Assembly: GCF_001590905.1 (NCBI RefSeq)
Contig: NZ_BCTT01000007.1
Coordinates: 124,001 to 188,000 of the forward strand
DNA: 64,000 bases
Reading direction: 5' to 3'
Source of the DNA: Serratia grimesii NBRC 13537
GTDB taxonomy: Bacteria; Pseudomonadota; Gammaproteobacteria; Enterobacterales; Enterobacteriaceae
Both the position numbers and the translations under genes were made by a program. Shown here one piece after another: positions 56,470 to 63,463 of this stretch (position 1 is its first letter; each line of letters begins with the position of its first letter). The notes below the pieces were generated by a model. That model ran no database searches. It had not been told where the DNA came from and saw nothing but the letters and a program-made list of their open reading frames with translations.

Positions 56470-56617
56470 GATGGGATGACAGAAAATAGCAATAATGAAG
56501 ACCCAATATCGGGTTGAAAACATCACCAAAGCCTATTACGAACGAAAAAACCCACAAAAACACAAACAAATACACGTCACTAACAATAATTATGACGAAG
56601 ACATCATTTTTCATGTT

Positions 56618-56645
56618 AAAAAAAAGGACAATAAAATTATTGCCC
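56618..56645 (-). terminator. dapB terminator
   Basis: On the minus strand GGGCAAT-AATTTT-ATTGTCC (56645-56626, one G-T pair) is followed by TTTTTTTT. It lies about 55 nt after the dapB stop. Confidence 0.88.
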
Positions 56646-56699
56646 TTTAATCATATGGTTATGATTAATACAACCACATCACGATGGTGTATAAATTAA

Positions 56700-57841
<1,142 letters not shown>

Positions 57842-57866
57842 AAAAAAGGCACCACGAAGGGTGCCT
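57842..57866 (-). terminator. Terminator of the isonitrile operon
   Basis: On the minus strand AGGCACC-CTTCGT-GGTGCCT (57866-57847) is followed by TTTTTA. It lies 22 nt after the glycosyltransferase stop and closes the three-gene operon. Confidence 0.9.
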
Positions 57867-57888
57867 AAAAGGTCATGAAACGGGTTGT

Positions 57889-59163
57889 TCACCCGGTTAA
57901 TGCCACCACTTCCTCAGCGATCATCGCCAGCGCATCATGACGAGCATAATCAGCCTGGACCAGCGCCGCACGCTGTCGATACAGTGGTTGTGCCAGAATC
58001 TGCTGCACAGCCTGCCTCAACTGCGCTTCATCCGGATTGCTGGTCTGTAGGTTTACCCCACAGCCCGCAGCGACCACCCGCGTAGCTGCCTCGAGTTTAT
58101 CCTCCCCCGTACCGGCGACAATCAAGGGGACACCGTGATCCAACGCGGCGTTGATCGAACCGTAACCGCCATTGGTGATCAGCAGCGCCGCCTGCGGCAA
58201 CCAGTGATCGAAAGAGATAAACTCTTGTACCTTGGCGTTGGCAGGCAACAACGCCAACAGTGCTTCGACCGAACGCCCGCCAGTGGTCGCCAAAACCCGC
58301 ACTGGTAACTGCGACAGCGCCTTCAGTGTTGGCACAATCAACTGGTGCAGATCGACATTCGCCAGCGTGCCCTGCGAGACGATCACCAACGGACGACGAT
58401 CTGACTCATCCCAGAGGTCTGGAGTCTGCTCCGCCGTCGCTACATGGCGTAATGGACCGATAAAGCGCACGCTGTCAGGCAAATCGTCACGGGGATATTC
58501 CAGCGCCGGGGTGGCCAGTTGCAAAAAGCGATCACAGCCGCCAATCAATGCATCAGTAAACGCTTGTTGCAGTGGCTTACCGCCGGATTGAGCCATCGCA
58601 ACATCAAAACGCTGTTGCACTTCATCGATGAGCAAACGGGTCGCATCATCCACCAGTTGCTCACGCAGCAGATCACGAGGCAATAATGCGGGGGGTATAC
58701 GCGGCCCGTAGAAGATCGAATCCGTTGAAGAATACGACAACGGTGTCACGCCAATGCCGAGCACCGGGGGACGATCCATCGTCTGCAGCAGTGGCAACAC
58801 GCCATAGAAGCAGTTTTCCACCATCAACAAATCCGTGGGCTCAGCCGTAATCGCGATGCGTAATTGCTGATCCAATAGTGGGATCGGCGCAGCAAAAAAA
58901 TCTTTCAGCGCTAACGCCATCTGTGCATTACCGGGAGGCAACGCAGCACGCTCTGGAAAGTGCTGTTCAAGATAGCGGTAATCAAAATCCACCCGCTCAT
59001 CAAAGGCGATAAATTGCGCGCCAGCTGCTTCGGCACGTTCACGAAACAGGGCACCGGTCATCACCCGAACCTGATGCCCTTGCGCAATCAGGTGTCGAGC
59101 AATGCTCAGCATCGGATAAACATGACCCGGCGTTGCCACCGCGGTCATCAGAATACATGCCAT
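57889..59163 (-). CDS. Family-1 (UGT/MGT-like) glycosyltransferase of the isonitrile cluster
   Basis: Probable GT-B fold glycosyltransferase acting on the small-molecule product of the two genes before it. The 424 residues show an N-terminal acceptor half with TPGHVYPML, whose His14 is in the position of the catalytic base, and a C-terminal donor half with VSQGTLAN (262-269), TNGGYGS (330-336) and VAGTGEDK (349-356). The usual HGG of plant-type enzymes is NGG here, as in many bacterial relatives. The sugar donor cannot be read by eye; dTDP- or UDP-sugars are typical. It starts 6 nt after the oxygenase stop. Confidence 0.85.
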   Translation of the reverse strand: MACILMTAVATPGHVYPMLSIARHLIAQGHQVRVMTGALFRERAEAAGAQFIAFDERVDFDYRYLEQHFPERAALPPGNAQMALALKDFFAAPIPLLDQQLRIAITAEPTDLLMVENCFYGVLPLLQTMDRPPVLGIGVTPLSYSSTDSIFYGPRIPPALLPRDLLREQLVDDATRLLIDEVQQRFDVAMAQSGGKPLQQAFTDALIGGCDRFLQLATPALEYPRDDLPDSVRFIGPLRHVATAEQTPDLWDESDRRPLVIVSQGTLANVDLHQLIVPTLKALSQLPVRVLATTGGRSVEALLALLPANAKVQEFISFDHWLPQAALLITNGGYGSINAALDHGVPLIVAGTGEDKLEAATRVVAAGCGVNLQTSNPDEAQLRQAVQQILAQPLYRQRAALVQADYARHDALAMIAEEVVALTG

Positions 59164-59169
59164 AACGGG

Positions 59170-60033
59170 TTAAACCTCTGCGTTAGCCGGCTTCAGCGCC
59201 AGATTGGCGCACACCGGGTTACTCTGAATATGCACGCGCTGCAAATGGCGTGCGGAACGGGCCGTGAAACCTTCACGGCCGTGCAATAATGAGAAGTTGT
59301 CAGCTATGACCACGTCACCCTGCTGCCATTGATGGGCATAATAGTGGCGCGGATCGTACAGGTGCTGCTGCAACGTCTGATGGAAAGCCTCCTGTTGATC
59401 TTGCGGCACGCCGTGGTATTCCAAAGCATGCTGATTCAGGAATTTCTTGCCCTCGGTCGGTGGCTCGTTGTAACGCATGATCTGCCCATGGCCGCTTGGA
59501 TGCGTCACCACCAGTGGCGAACATACCTCACCGCCATAGTGCACCACCTGCTTAATACGGTAGGAGATCGATACCGTCAGCCATTGGGCCAATAGTGATT
59601 CATCGGCATTGGCCAGCAAGCGTGTGGTATCTACAAAGGTAGTCCGCCCGCCTTCATCCTGTGAAGGTGCAGCGACGCAGTGGAACAGCTGGAATTCTGG
59701 AATGGTCGGCTTGTACATACCATCCCAATGCAGTGGCACATAACTGCTGTCGAAAATGTGGTCCTTGGCGTCCGGGTGTTCTTTCACGTCCAACACAGCA
59801 CCGAACGGCCACATCATAATGTCTCCCCACCCCTCGGCATAATGAGTCAGTACCTGTGGGTCGTTAAAGCCGGAGTCAAAGCCGCGCAACACCAGCAGAT
59901 GATGCTGCTGCGCTAATGCCCGCAGTGCAGCTACCGGCAGTTCGCTGATGTGCTGCCCAGAGTGCATAGGGGTCAGTACCGCACCAAAGGGGGTATTCAG
60001 TTCAATGCGGCAGTTCAGTGTTTGATTGTCCAT
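59170..60033 (-). CDS. Fe(II)/2-oxoglutarate-dependent oxygenase, PvcB/IsnB type
   Basis: TauD-family oxygenase. Known IsnB enzymes oxidatively decarboxylate the tyrosine isonitrile to a vinyl isonitrile; PvcB performs a related oxidation. The 287 residues carry the 2-His-1-carboxylate facial triad: HWD at 102-104 (H102, D104) and H251 in LLHGREGF, with R262 and R266 placed to bind 2-oxoglutarate. WGDIMMWPFGAVLDVKEHPD is typical of the PvcB branch. It follows the isocyanide synthase by 90 nt containing two hairpins. IsnB rather than PvcB function is inferred from the glycosyltransferase partner. Confidence 0.87.
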   Translation of the reverse strand: MDNQTLNCRIELNTPFGAVLTPMHSGQHISELPVAALRALAQQHHLLVLRGFDSGFNDPQVLTHYAEGWGDIMMWPFGAVLDVKEHPDAKDHIFDSSYVPLHWDGMYKPTIPEFQLFHCVAAPSQDEGGRTTFVDTTRLLANADESLLAQWLTVSISYRIKQVVHYGGEVCSPLVVTHPSGHGQIMRYNEPPTEGKKFLNQHALEYHGVPQDQQEAFHQTLQQHLYDPRHYYAHQWQQGDVVIADNFSLLHGREGFTARSARHLQRVHIQSNPVCANLALKPANAEV

Positions 60034-60067
60034 CAGTAACTCTCCTTGAATCGAATTTGCTGCTCAC

Positions 60068-60111
60068 ACGGCAACCGTGCCGTTAAAAGACGCCCGCCAA
60101 GATTGCGGGCG
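60068..60111 (-). other. Two hairpins between isocyanide synthase and oxygenase genes
   Basis: On the minus strand CGCCCGC-AATCTTG-GCGGGCG (60111-60091) is followed by TCTTTTAA, then ACGGCA-CGGT-TGCCGT (60083-60068). The first resembles a weak intrinsic terminator or an mRNA-stabilising structure inside the operon. Confidence 0.6.
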
Positions 60112-60123
60112 TAATGTGGCCTA

Positions 60124-61089
60124 TTACGCCATTTGAGGCTGTTCGATCAGGTAATGGCTGGGTGTCCCGCGGATCGTTACCAGCTCACCCGCTAACTGTT
60201 GAGCATCCTTGCGCTTCATCAATACAAACTGTCCGTTGATGTTCGCCGCTACACCGTGCCACGGGGTCAGCCAATCATCTTTTGTTGGCATCATATGGAT
60301 GCCCATTTTCAGGCTGTCCGAAGGCTGCGGATGAATAGACAAGCGTATCGCCGATGGGAAATGCTGGGCCAACAAATTGCCCCAAGCCCAGCTACGCTGT
60401 ATCACGCCACACGCACGTTGTTTGGCATCTTTTTGCAGCGCCGCGTTGGAACCAACGTAATCAGGAAGTTGACTGTCTTCATACAAAAAGCGGGTGATGG
60501 CACGATACAGCTGTAACCCTTGTTCATCCTGCATCAACTGTTGTTTGATCGTCGTTTCCGATTCGGCATAGCCGTCGACCAGCAACTGACGCAGGAGATC
60601 GTAATCACCGGTATGTTCGGCCAACCCTTCCACGTCGCCCAGGTTGAACACGCTCAGGTGAGTCGCCCCAACTTCGTGTAACAAGTTTTCAATTTCGCGC
60701 TGATAATGGTTAATGGCGTCGTCGCTGACGCGGATCAAATCACCGAAAACATGACCGTCAGAACAGATGACGATATGCGCACCTGGCGGGTAATAAAGCT
60801 GAATACGCTGGCAGAGAGAATTAAGGAATATCAGCGACAGCCGTTCTGCCATATCGGGCACCGAACCAATCACCTTATTAGTATTAGGTGATTTTGTTGG
60901 GAAGGCCGGGAGTACAAATTCAATACGCTGTTGGTTTTCAATAAATGCACGGATACGCGGTAATTGTACCTGAGAAACGGCATGTTCTTCCTCATTGTTT
61001 GAGGTTTCCAATCCTGGGAACCGACGTCGATATTGCAATAGCTCATGAAGGATTTTTAACGATATTGTATTAATACGAGCACTATCCAC
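60124..61089 (-). CDS. Isocyanide (isonitrile) synthase, PvcA/IsnA (DIT1) family
   Basis: Family members convert the amino group of tyrosine (or tryptophan) into an isonitrile using ribulose 5-phosphate as the carbon source. The 321 residues contain the family stretches PAFPTKSPNTNKVIGSVPD (61-79), IVICSDGHVFGDLIRVSDD (106-124), IQRSWAWGN (230-238) and RLSIHPQ (249-255). Start is GTG at 61089 with AGGAG six to seven nt upstream. It heads a three-gene operon with an oxygenase and a glycosyltransferase and is divergent from a LysR regulator. Substrate (Tyr or Trp) is inferred as Tyr from the cluster type. Confidence 0.9.
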   Translation of the reverse strand: MDSARINTISLKILHELLQYRRRFPGLETSNNEEEHAVSQVQLPRIRAFIENQQRIEFVLPAFPTKSPNTNKVIGSVPDMAERLSLIFLNSLCQRIQLYYPPGAHIVICSDGHVFGDLIRVSDDAINHYQREIENLLHEVGATHLSVFNLGDVEGLAEHTGDYDLLRQLLVDGYAESETTIKQQLMQDEQGLQLYRAITRFLYEDSQLPDYVGSNAALQKDAKQRACGVIQRSWAWGNLLAQHFPSAIRLSIHPQPSDSLKMGIHMMPTKDDWLTPWHGVAANINGQFVLMKRKDAQQLAGELVTIRGTPSHYLIEQPQMA

Positions 61090-61280
61090 AATTAACTCCT
61101 GTTCAGATGTGGCGCAGGCAATTTATTCGCAAACGCAATAAGACTTATCAAAAAGAGAGATGACGCTCGGGAAATAAGTCTGCCCTCACGATTTATCTGC
61201 TTCAGGCAATATAGAAGAGAAAATGCTATATTATTAGCCCGTATAATTCACAATCTTGGTTAAGTTGAACTTAACAAACT
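61090..61280. promoter_or_regulatory. Divergent promoter region of isonitrile operon and lysR gene
   Basis: 191 nt, AT-rich near the LysR side. A plus-strand -10 TATAAT lies at 61242-61247 with a poor -35 (GAAAAT-like). Minus-strand hexamers for the isonitrile operon are weak (TATATT at 61213-61208), as is usual for LysR-activated promoters. Confidence 0.5.
61259..61275. promoter_or_regulatory. Perfect palindrome next to the lysR start, putative operator
   Basis: GTTAAGTT-G-AACTTAAC is a perfect 8-bp inverted repeat around one base, ending 5 nt before the ATG of the LysR gene and about 12 nt downstream of the TATAAT. Its position suits autorepression; LysR proteins favour dyads of T-N11-A type. 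Confidence 0.65.
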
Positions 61281-62204
61281 ATGAGTAATATTCTAAAACG
61301 CATGGCCATTTTTTCTAAAGTTGTCGATTGCGGCGCGTTCAGCATGGCAGCCAAAGAATTAGGCATTACTACTTCCGCCGTCAGCCAGCATATCCGCTTG
61401 CTGGAAACCGAACTGGGCATTCAATTACTTCTACGTTCTACTCGTTCATTGAGCCTGACCGAGGCCGGACTGTGTTTTTATGAGGATTGTGTACTGATGA
61501 TCCATGCAGCCGAACGGGGACAGCAGCGTATCGCTGCCCTGCGCGGCGAACTGGCGGGGGAATTGCGCGTCGCCACCTCCACGGAGTTTGCCACCCATTA
61601 TCTGGTGCCGGCGCTGCAAAGCTTCCTGGACGAACACCCACGGATCACACTGAGATTGGAGATTCATGACGAAAAAATCGACCTGATAGGCCAACGCATT
61701 GATCTGGCAATTCGTGGTGGTGTGTTAGCCGACTCCAGTTACGTCTCGACCCGGCTGGCACGCTTTCGCGAAGTCCTGTGTGCCTCTCCAACCTACCTTG
61801 CCAGCCACGGCATACCCGATAGTCCTCAGTCACTAACCCACCACCAATGGGTCACTTTTACTCCCTTGGGCAATCCGCAGTTTGTTCGCCTGCTCCACCA
61901 TGACGGTGCAGAACATCGGTTGCGAATGACCGGACGTTTATTTACCAATAACGGCATGGCGATGAAAGAATTGGCACTGGCTGGCAAAGGAATCATCCGT
62001 AATTTCTTTGTCAATGTTGAGCGTGAATTACACAACGGTGATTTGGTGGAAGTGTTACCCGAGTGGCGATTACCCGATATTAATTGCTATGCCATTATGC
62101 CAAGAAGGGACAGCCAACCATTAAAAGTTCGCCGTTTATTAGAGCATATGAAAATCCATTTACAGAAAAAAGAGAAGCATTCTTTAGAGCAGTTCAGAAC
62201 TTAA
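61281..62204 (+). CDS. LysR-family regulator adjacent to isonitrile cluster
   Basis: Probable regulator of the divergent isonitrile operon. The 307 residues have an N-terminal winged helix (MAAKELGITTSAVSQHIRLL at about 26-45) and a periplasmic-binding-like effector domain with VATSTEFATHYLVPAL. It belongs to the CrgA-like group rather than to LeuO. No strong Shine-Dalgarno sequence precedes the ATG; the palindrome occupies that space, so operator binding could also affect translation of a short-leader mRNA. Regulation of the operon is inferred from orientation. Confidence 0.88.
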   Translation: MSNILKRMAIFSKVVDCGAFSMAAKELGITTSAVSQHIRLLETELGIQLLLRSTRSLSLTEAGLCFYEDCVLMIHAAERGQQRIAALRGELAGELRVATSTEFATHYLVPALQSFLDEHPRITLRLEIHDEKIDLIGQRIDLAIRGGVLADSSYVSTRLARFREVLCASPTYLASHGIPDSPQSLTHHQWVTFTPLGNPQFVRLLHHDGAEHRLRMTGRLFTNNGMAMKELALAGKGIIRNFFVNVERELHNGDLVEVLPEWRLPDINCYAIMPRRDSQPLKVRRLLEHMKIHLQKKEKHSLEQFRT

Positions 62205-62509: not shown

Positions 62510-63463
62510 TTATTCAACCTGCTTGATATCAACCCGCAGCTCTTTCGGCACTTCAAACACGATGTTCTCTTCGCGTCCACTGACTTCCTGCACGTTAGCA
62601 CCACCCAGCGCCTTCAGACGACTGATCACATCCTGAACCAACACGTCAGGTGCGGATGCTCCGGCGGTAACACCAATATTACGGGCACCTTTCAGCCAGG
62701 CTTCCTGAATGTCAGCCGCGGAGTCAATCAGATATGCCGGCTCGCCGACACGCTGAGCCAACTCCGCCAGACGGTTAGAGTTAGACGAGTTTTTCGACCC
62801 CACAACCAGAACCACATCCGCATCACCAGCCAGGTTACGTACTGCTTCCTGACGGTTAGTGGTGGCGTAGCAGATATCGTCCTTACGCGGGCCGATAATG
62901 CTCGGGAAGCGCTTGCGCAATGCATCGATCACGTCAGACGTATCATCCACCGACAATGTGGTTTGTGTCATAAAGCACAGGTTGCTCTCATCCTTCACCT
63001 GCAGCTTCCACACATCATCTGGCGACTCGACCAGGTACATGCCCCCTTTAGGGTTACTGTACTGGCCCATGGTGCCTTCCACTTCTGGATGGCCCGCATG
63101 ACCAATCAGGATCGCCTCGGTACCACGGCGACTGGCTCGCGCCACTTCCATATGTACTTTGGTTACCAGTGGGCAAGTTGCATCAAACAGCATGGTCAAA
63201 TCACGTGCTTTGGCTTCTGCTCGTACCGCCTGAGAAACACCGTGCGCCGAGAAGATCAAAATAGACCCATCCGGCACTTCGGTGATTTCCTCAATGAACA
63301 CCGCCCCGCGCTCACGCAGGCTATCTACCACATAGCGGTTATGCACCACTTCGTGGCGTACATAGATAGGCGCGCCGTAAATTTCCAGCGCACGTTCAAC
63401 GATACTGATCGCACGATCAACCCCAGCACAGAAGCCGCGTGGGTTAGCCAGCAATATTTGCAT
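62510..63463 (-). CDS. ispH: 4-hydroxy-3-methylbut-2-enyl diphosphate reductase IspH
   Basis: Last enzyme of the MEP pathway, making IPP and DMAPP with a [4Fe-4S] cluster. The 317 residues hold the three cluster cysteines C12 (PRGFCAGV), C97 (FDATCPLV) and C198 ([11 protein letters not shown]), and the HGV and TQTTL motifs. E. coli IspH has 316 residues. It overlaps the end of fkpB by 20 nt, the conserved lspA-fkpB-ispH arrangement. Confidence 0.98.

What the first reader, a model, noticed from the sequence alone, without database searches (positions are those of the whole stretch)
57842..62204. Isonitrile synthase, oxygenase and glycosyltransferase operon with divergent LysR regulator
Seen: three minus-strand genes (PvcA/IsnA-type synthase, PvcB/IsnB-type Fe(II)/2OG oxygenase with H102/D104/H251, GT1 glycosyltransferase) closed by one terminator, and a divergent LysR gene. 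Known: IsnA plus IsnB make tyrosine vinyl-isonitrile, and a glycosyltransferase completes rhabduscin (Xenorhabdus, Photorhabdus); byelyankacin is a related rhamnoside. Inference: the product is a glycosylated vinyl-isonitrile, possibly a phenoloxidase/tyrosinase inhibitor or copper-binding agent relevant to insect or plant hosts. No transporter gene is present, and the sugar is unknown.
Basis: partly seen in the sequence, partly recalled or inferred. Interest (0 to 1): 0.88.

Follow-up and report, generated by a model that had tools for sequence, protein, structure and literature searches.

The report
Rhabduscin-type isonitrile glycoside operon, Serratia
This Serratia genome carries a three-gene pathway that very likely turns tyrosine into a sugar-capped isonitrile like the insect-immunity blocker rhabduscin, although details of the sugar-adding enzyme suggest that the sugar may be a different one.

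Summary
Three minus-strand genes encode an L-tyrosine isonitrile synthase, a vinyl-isonitrile-type Fe/2OG oxygenase and a GT1 glycosyltransferase; a divergent LysR gene faces them and a terminator ends the operon. By nearest named loci the host is a Serratia. This is a rhabduscin-type cluster: a new member of a known kind (isnAB homologues in S. marcescens are in print).

New here: 26 of 30 genus genomes carry it; the four without it are 1.5-3.6 Mb. Its glycosyltransferase is 53-65% identical to the Xenorhabdus and Photorhabdus ones. A byelyankacin-like rhamnoside is unlikely: the own genome and 11 of the 25 other carriers show no rmlC. dTDP-Fuc4NAc, probably rhabduscin's donor, can be made. 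But the glycosyltransferase keeps the sugar-contacting Asp (26 of 26) that all Xenorhabdus and Photorhabdus copies read have lost, so the sugar may be a third one. No product was shown. A 2019 study held S. entomophila to lack phenoloxidase inhibitors; whether it carries this cluster was not tested here.

The parts
61281..62204 (+). LysR-type regulator gene, divergent
   Evidence: no NCBIfam model over its cut-off among the 25 of 52 rows shown; orthologue (86-97%) at the locus in all 12 named Serratia loci, no LysR match over 36% at the loci of other genera
61259..61275 (.). inverted repeat GTTAAG-N5-CTTAAC (contains T-N11-A), 5 bp before the lysR start; candidate LysR site
   Evidence: exact in 25 of 26 distinct Serratia intergenic sequences; only match in the window at up to 1 mismatch, 0.08 expected
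61208..61232 (.). inverted repeat AATATAG-N11-CTATATT, 118 bp before pvcA; candidate activation site or promoter
   Evidence: exact in 26 of 26 distinct Serratia intergenic sequences; only match in the window at up to 2 mismatches, 0.05 expected
60124..61089 (-). pvcA/isnA, L-tyrosine isonitrile synthase
   Evidence: PF05141, NF045653 over cut-off, PDB 9dhm, 9dh4, 3e59, tree
60090..60112 (-). stem-loop of 8 pairs between pvcA and pvcB, followed by TTTT at 60088-60085: terminator-like or attenuator-like
   Evidence: 25 distinct Serratia sequences: 4 of 8 pairs change on both sides, 91.5% of cells paired; window fold -29.7 kcal/mol, z -2.07, 9 of 200 shuffles as low; too short a T run to be listed by the scan
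60068..60083 (-). second stem-loop of 6 pairs directly after the first
   Evidence: 96.7% of cells paired, no double changes
59170..60033 (-). pvcB/isnB, PIsnB-type Fe(II)/2OG oxygenase (H102, D104, H251; K108, N189)
   Evidence: PF02668, PDB 7tcl best, residues, tree
57889..59163 (-). GT1 (GT-B fold) glycosyltransferase, rhabduscin-GT clade; His14 and an acid at 116 (Glu, Asp in Xenorhabdus); donor motif G353-E-D-K356
57847..57866 (-). intrinsic terminator closing the operon

Best explanation
A rhabduscin-type biosynthetic operon of Serratia. PvcA/IsnA converts the amino group of L-tyrosine into an isonitrile. PvcB/IsnB, of the PIsnB type, desaturates and decarboxylates it to 4-(2-isocyanovinyl)phenol. 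The GT1 enzyme glycosylates the phenol with a nucleotide sugar taken from general metabolism. The divergent LysR protein probably controls both promoters through the conserved dyads, and the hairpin between pvcA and pvcB probably lowers pvcB-GT expression relative to pvcA. The product most likely works like rhabduscin (mimic inhibitor of phenoloxidase or tyrosinase; aglycone reported to block the alternative complement pathway). Shown by sequence: gene families, clade, diagnostic residues, conservation. Inferred: product, regulation, biological role. The sugar is unsettled: Fuc4NAc or an ordinary UDP-hexose, hardly dTDP-rhamnose.
For: PvcA equivalog cut-off met. PvcB diagnostic residues K and N, the PIsnB rule of PMC9467999. 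PvcB and GT fall with Xenorhabdus, Photorhabdus, Pectobacterium and Aeromonas, PvcB apart from the P. aeruginosa type. In the three Photorhabdus genomes searched the GTs are tandem copies away from isnAB, as published, and 56-65% identical to this GT (PMC6386379). Purifying selection. 26 of 30 genus genomes carry synthase and full-length GT. wecE and wecD over cut-off in the own genome; no rmlC match.
Against: No metabolite evidence. S. entomophila supernatant did not inhibit phenoloxidase (PMC6386379). Single mutations at the two PvcB diagnostic positions did not switch the product of PIsnB-Ah (PMC9467999), so they are markers and not proof. The GT donor motif GEDK differs from that of the rhabduscin genera. 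Regulation by this LysR is untested, and the sigma-70-type promoter scan found no excess over shuffles (7 vs 5.7).
Confidence: 0.8

Rival explanations
1. The product is rhabduscin itself: the GT uses dTDP-Fuc4NAc from enterobacterial common antigen synthesis.
For: wecE and wecD in the own genome and wecD over cut-off in all 26 cluster-bearing genus genomes. The GT is closer to a Photorhabdus GT (64% to L105) than that one is to three Xenorhabdus GTs (55-56%), although those two genera share the product. Rhabduscin is made in E. coli from the three genes alone (PMC6386379), so its donor is a native E. coli sugar.
Against: The Asp that in VvGT1 contacts the 3- and 4-OH (PMC10602602; position aligned) is Gly in 19 of 19 Xenorhabdus genes and Gly in 6 and Ser in 1 of 7 distinct Photorhabdus genes from three genomes, but Asp in 26 of 26 genus genomes and in the 4 Aeromonas genes read, whose four genomes show no wecE or wecD over cut-off. 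That rhabduscin's sugar is 4-acetamido-4,6-dideoxy is recalled, not read here.
Confidence: 0.38
2. The sugar is an ordinary UDP-hexose (Glc, Gal or GlcNAc), giving a glycoside different from rhabduscin and byelyankacin.
For: Canonical Asp kept; the same motif in Aeromonas genomes without wecE or wecD over cut-off and in Serratia without rmlC. The nearest solved folds tie between the macrolide GT 2iya and the TDP-bound CalG1, so the fold does not speak against it.
Against: Assumes one donor across GEDK enzymes; the Aeromonas GTs sit on a long branch of 1.08, and the ECA review lists Aeromonas hydrophila 209A in its table of organisms with ECA (passage only). The canonical Gln is Lys in every copy read. 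One residue is weak evidence.
Confidence: 0.42
3. A byelyankacin-type rhamnoside.
Against: No rmlC match in the own genome (given as 100% complete) nor in 11 of the other 25 carriers, seven of them in 1-3 contigs, while a full-length GT is in all 26. RmlD was not searched.
Confidence: 0.06
4. A paerucumarin (pvc) type pathway making isocyanoacrylate.
For: PvcA and PvcB homology to the solved PvcA and PvcB proteins.
Against: PvcB has K/N and not L/C; a branch of 100/99 support separates it from P. aeruginosa-type PvcB; a GT follows pvcB.
Confidence: 0.04

Closest known systems
Rhabduscin cluster isnA-isnB-GT of Xenorhabdus nematophila (XNC1_1221-1223)
   Same: Gene content and order; against other Xenorhabdus species PvcA is 69-72%, PvcB 52-57% and GT 53-56% identical (X. 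nematophila itself was not among the fetched loci)
   Different: Among the loci compared, the LysR orthologue is at the Serratia loci only, and I saw the pvcA-pvcB hairpin only there; the dyads were looked for in Serratia only; GT motif GEDK instead of GDGK; product unknown
Photorhabdus rhabduscin genes (isnAB, with the GT elsewhere in tandem)
   Same: PvcB 60-62%, GT 56-65% identical
   Different: GT unlinked and in 2-3 copies; GEGK or GESK motif
Pectobacterium pvcA-pvcB-GT cassette
   Same: Sister in the GT tree (93/85) and PvcB tree (97/95); GT 67-70%, PvcB 72-73% in the five complete loci; GEDK motif
   Different: No LysR orthologue and no dapB or ispH match in the loci fetched; degraded in some strains (L049, L094, L092)
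Paerucumarin pvcABCD of Pseudomonas aeruginosa
   Same: Synthase and oxygenase families
   Different: PvcB-type L/C residues; no GT match beside it in PA7

Membership tests
Rhabduscin-type cluster | L-Tyr isonitrile synthase of the IsnA clade | tested here: met
   (the PvcA tree does not resolve the order of the genera)
Rhabduscin-type cluster | PIsnB-type oxygenase (K/R and N/H at the two positions) | tested here: met
   K108 and N189; rule from PMC9467999
Rhabduscin-type cluster | Linked GT orthologous to the rhabduscin GT | tested here: met
Rhabduscin-type cluster | Donor-site residue as in the rhabduscin genera (Gly or Ser before Lys) | tested here: not met
   GEDK vs GDGK, GEGK, GESK; that this feature is defining is my inference, so I file it as rhabduscin-type and not as a rhabduscin cluster
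Rhabduscin-type cluster | Produces rhabduscin / inhibits phenoloxidase | not testable with these tools
   needs LC-MS and an enzyme assay
Byelyankacin-type rhamnoside pathway | dTDP-L-rhamnose supply | tested here: not met
   no rmlC match in the own genome; patchy in the genus; rmlD not searched
Paerucumarin/PvcB type | Leu and Cys at the PIsnB K107/N188 positions | tested here: not met
GT1 (GT-B) glycosyltransferase | GT-B fold and catalytic His | tested here: met
   that His14 is the catalytic residue is from general knowledge of the family

The most novel reading that the evidence does not exclude
Serratia makes a third vinyl-isonitrile glycoside, neither rhabduscin nor byelyankacin, from a genus-core operon that is silent in ordinary culture and gated by a LysR switch plus an internal attenuator; this would explain why a Serratia was scored as lacking phenoloxidase inhibitors.
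Probability: 0.3. Interest if true: 0.62.

Novelty: new member of a known kind. Interest (0 to 1): 0.42.

Why it matters
[quoted passage not shown] The 2019 phenoloxidase study used S. entomophila as a naive host and explained its negative result by a lack of inhibitors; a conserved native cluster in the genus makes that assumption testable. The Asp/Gly difference gives a concrete prediction of which sugar is attached.

Tried and rejected
Rhamnoside: disfavoured on rmlC distribution. Paerucumarin type: rejected on residues and tree. A linked exporter: I recognised none in the Serratia interval; eight flanking ORFs from six loci of other genera gave an OprB porin, an L,D-transpeptidase, YceI, a glutaredoxin 2, an Ntox21 domain and three without a family, so no shared partner was found in that sample. 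Rfam: no family at the operon up to E = 1 (only DapZ beside dapB). Fold comparison did not separate UDP- from TDP-sugar enzymes. The wecE of Pseudomonas G433 lies beside WbqC, GT2 and methyltransferase genes on another contig than the GT, so it says little about the GT donor. S. entomophila could not be looked up by name. A Burkholderia stagnalis record fetched carried no annotation and was not used. Literature searches (open-licence PMC only) listed no paper on a Serratia product of this cluster; I saw listings and starts of abstracts, and passages or sections of eight papers.

Weak points and corrections. The PvcA tree does not resolve relations among genera, and Pse, Aer and Phaseolibacter rows are long branches. 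The GT tree held repeated Photorhabdus rows: my script had taken the same gene from overlapping loci, so its seven rows were three genes. The '7 GEGK' is thus wrong as a count of genes. could read the motif in 54 of 86 GT hits (32 were cut fragments, and some of the 54 are repeats); the 25 other genus genomes were read in full. One search missed by a faulty expression. Hairpin counts: on 18 sequences that I picked, then on all 25 distinct ones: shuffles reaching the observed value were 3 of 500 (cells paired), 14 (pairs with double change), 1 (cells with double change), 60 (further pair types, not significant) and 1 (covariation score); the innermost pair is broken in 12 sequences, and the sequences are of one genus.
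Full report
Observation. The interval between dapB (56700-57521) and ispH (62510-63463) holds four intact genes as described. Family scans identify PvcA, a TauD-type oxygenase, a GT1/GT28-type glycosyltransferase and a LysR regulator; the synthase passes the curated cut-off of the L-tyrosine isonitrile synthase equivalog. The solved structures matched are 9dhm, 9dh4 and PvcA 3e59 for the synthase and, best first, 7tcl (PIsnB by PMC9467999) and PvcB 3eat/4ylm for the oxygenase. The closing terminator is there.

Host and distribution. The nearest named locus is Serratia sp. PL17 (PvcA 98, PvcB 99, GT 94%). In the genus, 26 of 30 genomes carry the synthase over cut-off and a full-length GT (its tally of 30 of 30 includes four matches of about 40 residues under 20 bits); the four others are 1.5, 1.9, 2.5 and 3.6 Mb. 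In an even sample of 394 genomes of the order, 9 matched the synthase family, 8 over cut-off. A named-genome scan gave 69 loci in Serratia, Pectobacterium, Xenorhabdus, Photorhabdus, Aeromonas, Pseudomonas and a few others; it depends on two short peptide patterns and is not a census. Of 12 named Serratia loci, 11 show ispH on one side and 10 show dapB on the other; L039 is cut by its contig end and L038 shows no dapB in the stretch held. The LysR orthologue is at the locus in all 12 and not in other genera.

Chemistry. Published work divides these oxygenases into PIsnB type (K/R and N/H; vinyl isonitrile) and PvcB type (L and C; isocyanoacrylate) (PMC9467999, section read). The window enzyme has K108 and N189. 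K/R with N is found at every GT-linked locus whose PvcB was complete enough to align, while P. aeruginosa PA7, two further Pseudomonas and a Paraburkholderia have L/C; a few distant homologues fit neither type. In the tree this PvcB lies with Pectobacterium, Photorhabdus, Aeromonas, Xenorhabdus and one Pseudomonas, separated from P. aeruginosa-type PvcB by a branch of 100/99. The GT tree, rebuilt with distinct genes only, keeps the genera as clean groups, with Xenorhabdus and Photorhabdus together at 99/95 and Serratia with Pectobacterium at 93/85 (one search held repeated rows). In three Photorhabdus genomes the GT lies away from isnAB in two or three tandem copies, as PMC6386379 states for rhabduscin (passages); P. 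asymbiotica has three, matching PAU_02755-7 in PMC4683029 (passages). The GT is therefore an orthologue of the rhabduscin GT.

Which sugar. dTDP-Fuc4NAc is made by RmlA, RmlB, WecE and WecD (PMC7439462, passages). The own genome has wecE and wecD over cut-off, and all 26 cluster-bearing genus genomes have wecD over cut-off. RmlC, needed for dTDP-rhamnose, has no match in the own genome or in the two Xenorhabdus and two Photorhabdus genomes searched, and is found in 14 of the 26 carriers. So rhamnose is hardly the general donor. Rhabduscin's donor is an amido sugar available in E. coli, since the three genes suffice there (PMC6386379); that it is 4-acetamido-4,6-dideoxy is recalled. Against simple identity, the profile alignment puts window D355-K356 opposite the Asp-Gln pair of solved GT1 enzymes; in VvGT1 this Asp contacts the 3- and 4-OH (PMC10602602, passage). 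It is Asp in 26 of 26 genus genomes (window; 25 others), in 5 of 5 Pectobacterium, the 4 full-length Aeromonas and 1 Pseudomonas genes, but Gly in 19 of 19 Xenorhabdus genes and Gly in 6 and Ser in 1 of 7 distinct Photorhabdus genes. None of the four Aeromonas genomes searched has wecE or wecD over cut-off. This suggests, without proving, that GEDK enzymes use a sugar with a free 4-OH. Structure prediction gave a good GT-B model (pLDDT 85.6), whose nearest solved neighbours tie between a macrolide GT and a TDP-bound enzyme.

Regulation. The lysR-pvcA gap of 190-193 bp holds two inverted repeats, exact in 25 of 26 and 26 of 26 distinct Serratia sequences; the first abuts the lysR start. Their role as LysR sites is inferred from position, symmetry and T-N11-A spacing. 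Between pvcA and pvcB a GC stem with a T run is conserved in Serratia; across 25 distinct sequences 4 of its 8 pairs change on both sides and 91.5% of cells pair (shuffle controls are given under Tried and rejected). In the gaps of 14 loci of other genera I saw no GC stem followed by a T run (by eye); refolding them gave -15.8 kcal/mol for one Pectobacterium gap (L045) and -8.4 or weaker for the others, against -29.7 in the window and -32.3 in S. marcescens, whose gaps are longer. It looks like a partial terminator or attenuator, unlike a plain co-transcribed operon.

Selection. dN/dS against five Serratia loci is 0.016-0.040 for pvcB, 0.028-0.039 for pvcA, 0.041-0.067 for lysR and 0.076-0.102 for the GT, versus 0.057-0.067 for dapB and 0.012-0.033 for ispH (dS exceeds 1 in several pairs, so ratios are rough). 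The GT is the fastest but clearly constrained.

Literature and novelty. isnAB homologues in S. marcescens are mentioned in print (PMC6386379, citing the list in a supplement of PMC4683029, which I did not open). PMC6386379 used S. entomophila Mor4.1 as a strain unable to inhibit phenoloxidase and attributed this to a lack of inhibiting factors (sections read); its authors tested supernatants. If that strain carries the locus, the result means silence, cell-surface retention or a different activity. I could not identify S. entomophila among the genomes given without names. The finding is thus a new member of a known kind with a few features that my searches did not find described.

Noticed in passing
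window 56616-56692 (-): Match to DapZ small RNA (RF02551, 71 bits, gathering 56) just downstream of dapB.
   Followed up: no
L049, L094, L092 (Pectobacterium): Degraded cassettes: L049 and L094 keep pvcA but only about 30 aa matching pvcB and no GT match in the stretch held; L092 has partial matches to all three.
   Followed up: partly
L147 286-1584 (-), P. asymbiotica genome: The third tandem GT copy is the most divergent Photorhabdus one and has Ser (GESK) where the others have Gly; PMC4683029 suggests that this species' rhabduscin may differ.
   Followed up: partly
L099, L100 (Bdellovibrionia MAGs): PvcB homologues with R and C at the two diagnostic positions, neither PIsnB nor PvcB type.
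   Followed up: no
G006, G009, G017, G020 (same genus, 1.5-3.6 Mb): The only genus members without the cluster are those with reduced genomes; two of them keep wecD over cut-off.
   Followed up: partly
L034 with L032 (genome G298): Two PvcA-family genes near each other on one contig (one in an 879-aa open frame), with a PvcB homologue at 36%.
   Followed up: no
L044 4326-5024 (Pectobacterium zantedeschiae): Ntox21-domain protein upstream of the cassette.
   Followed up: no
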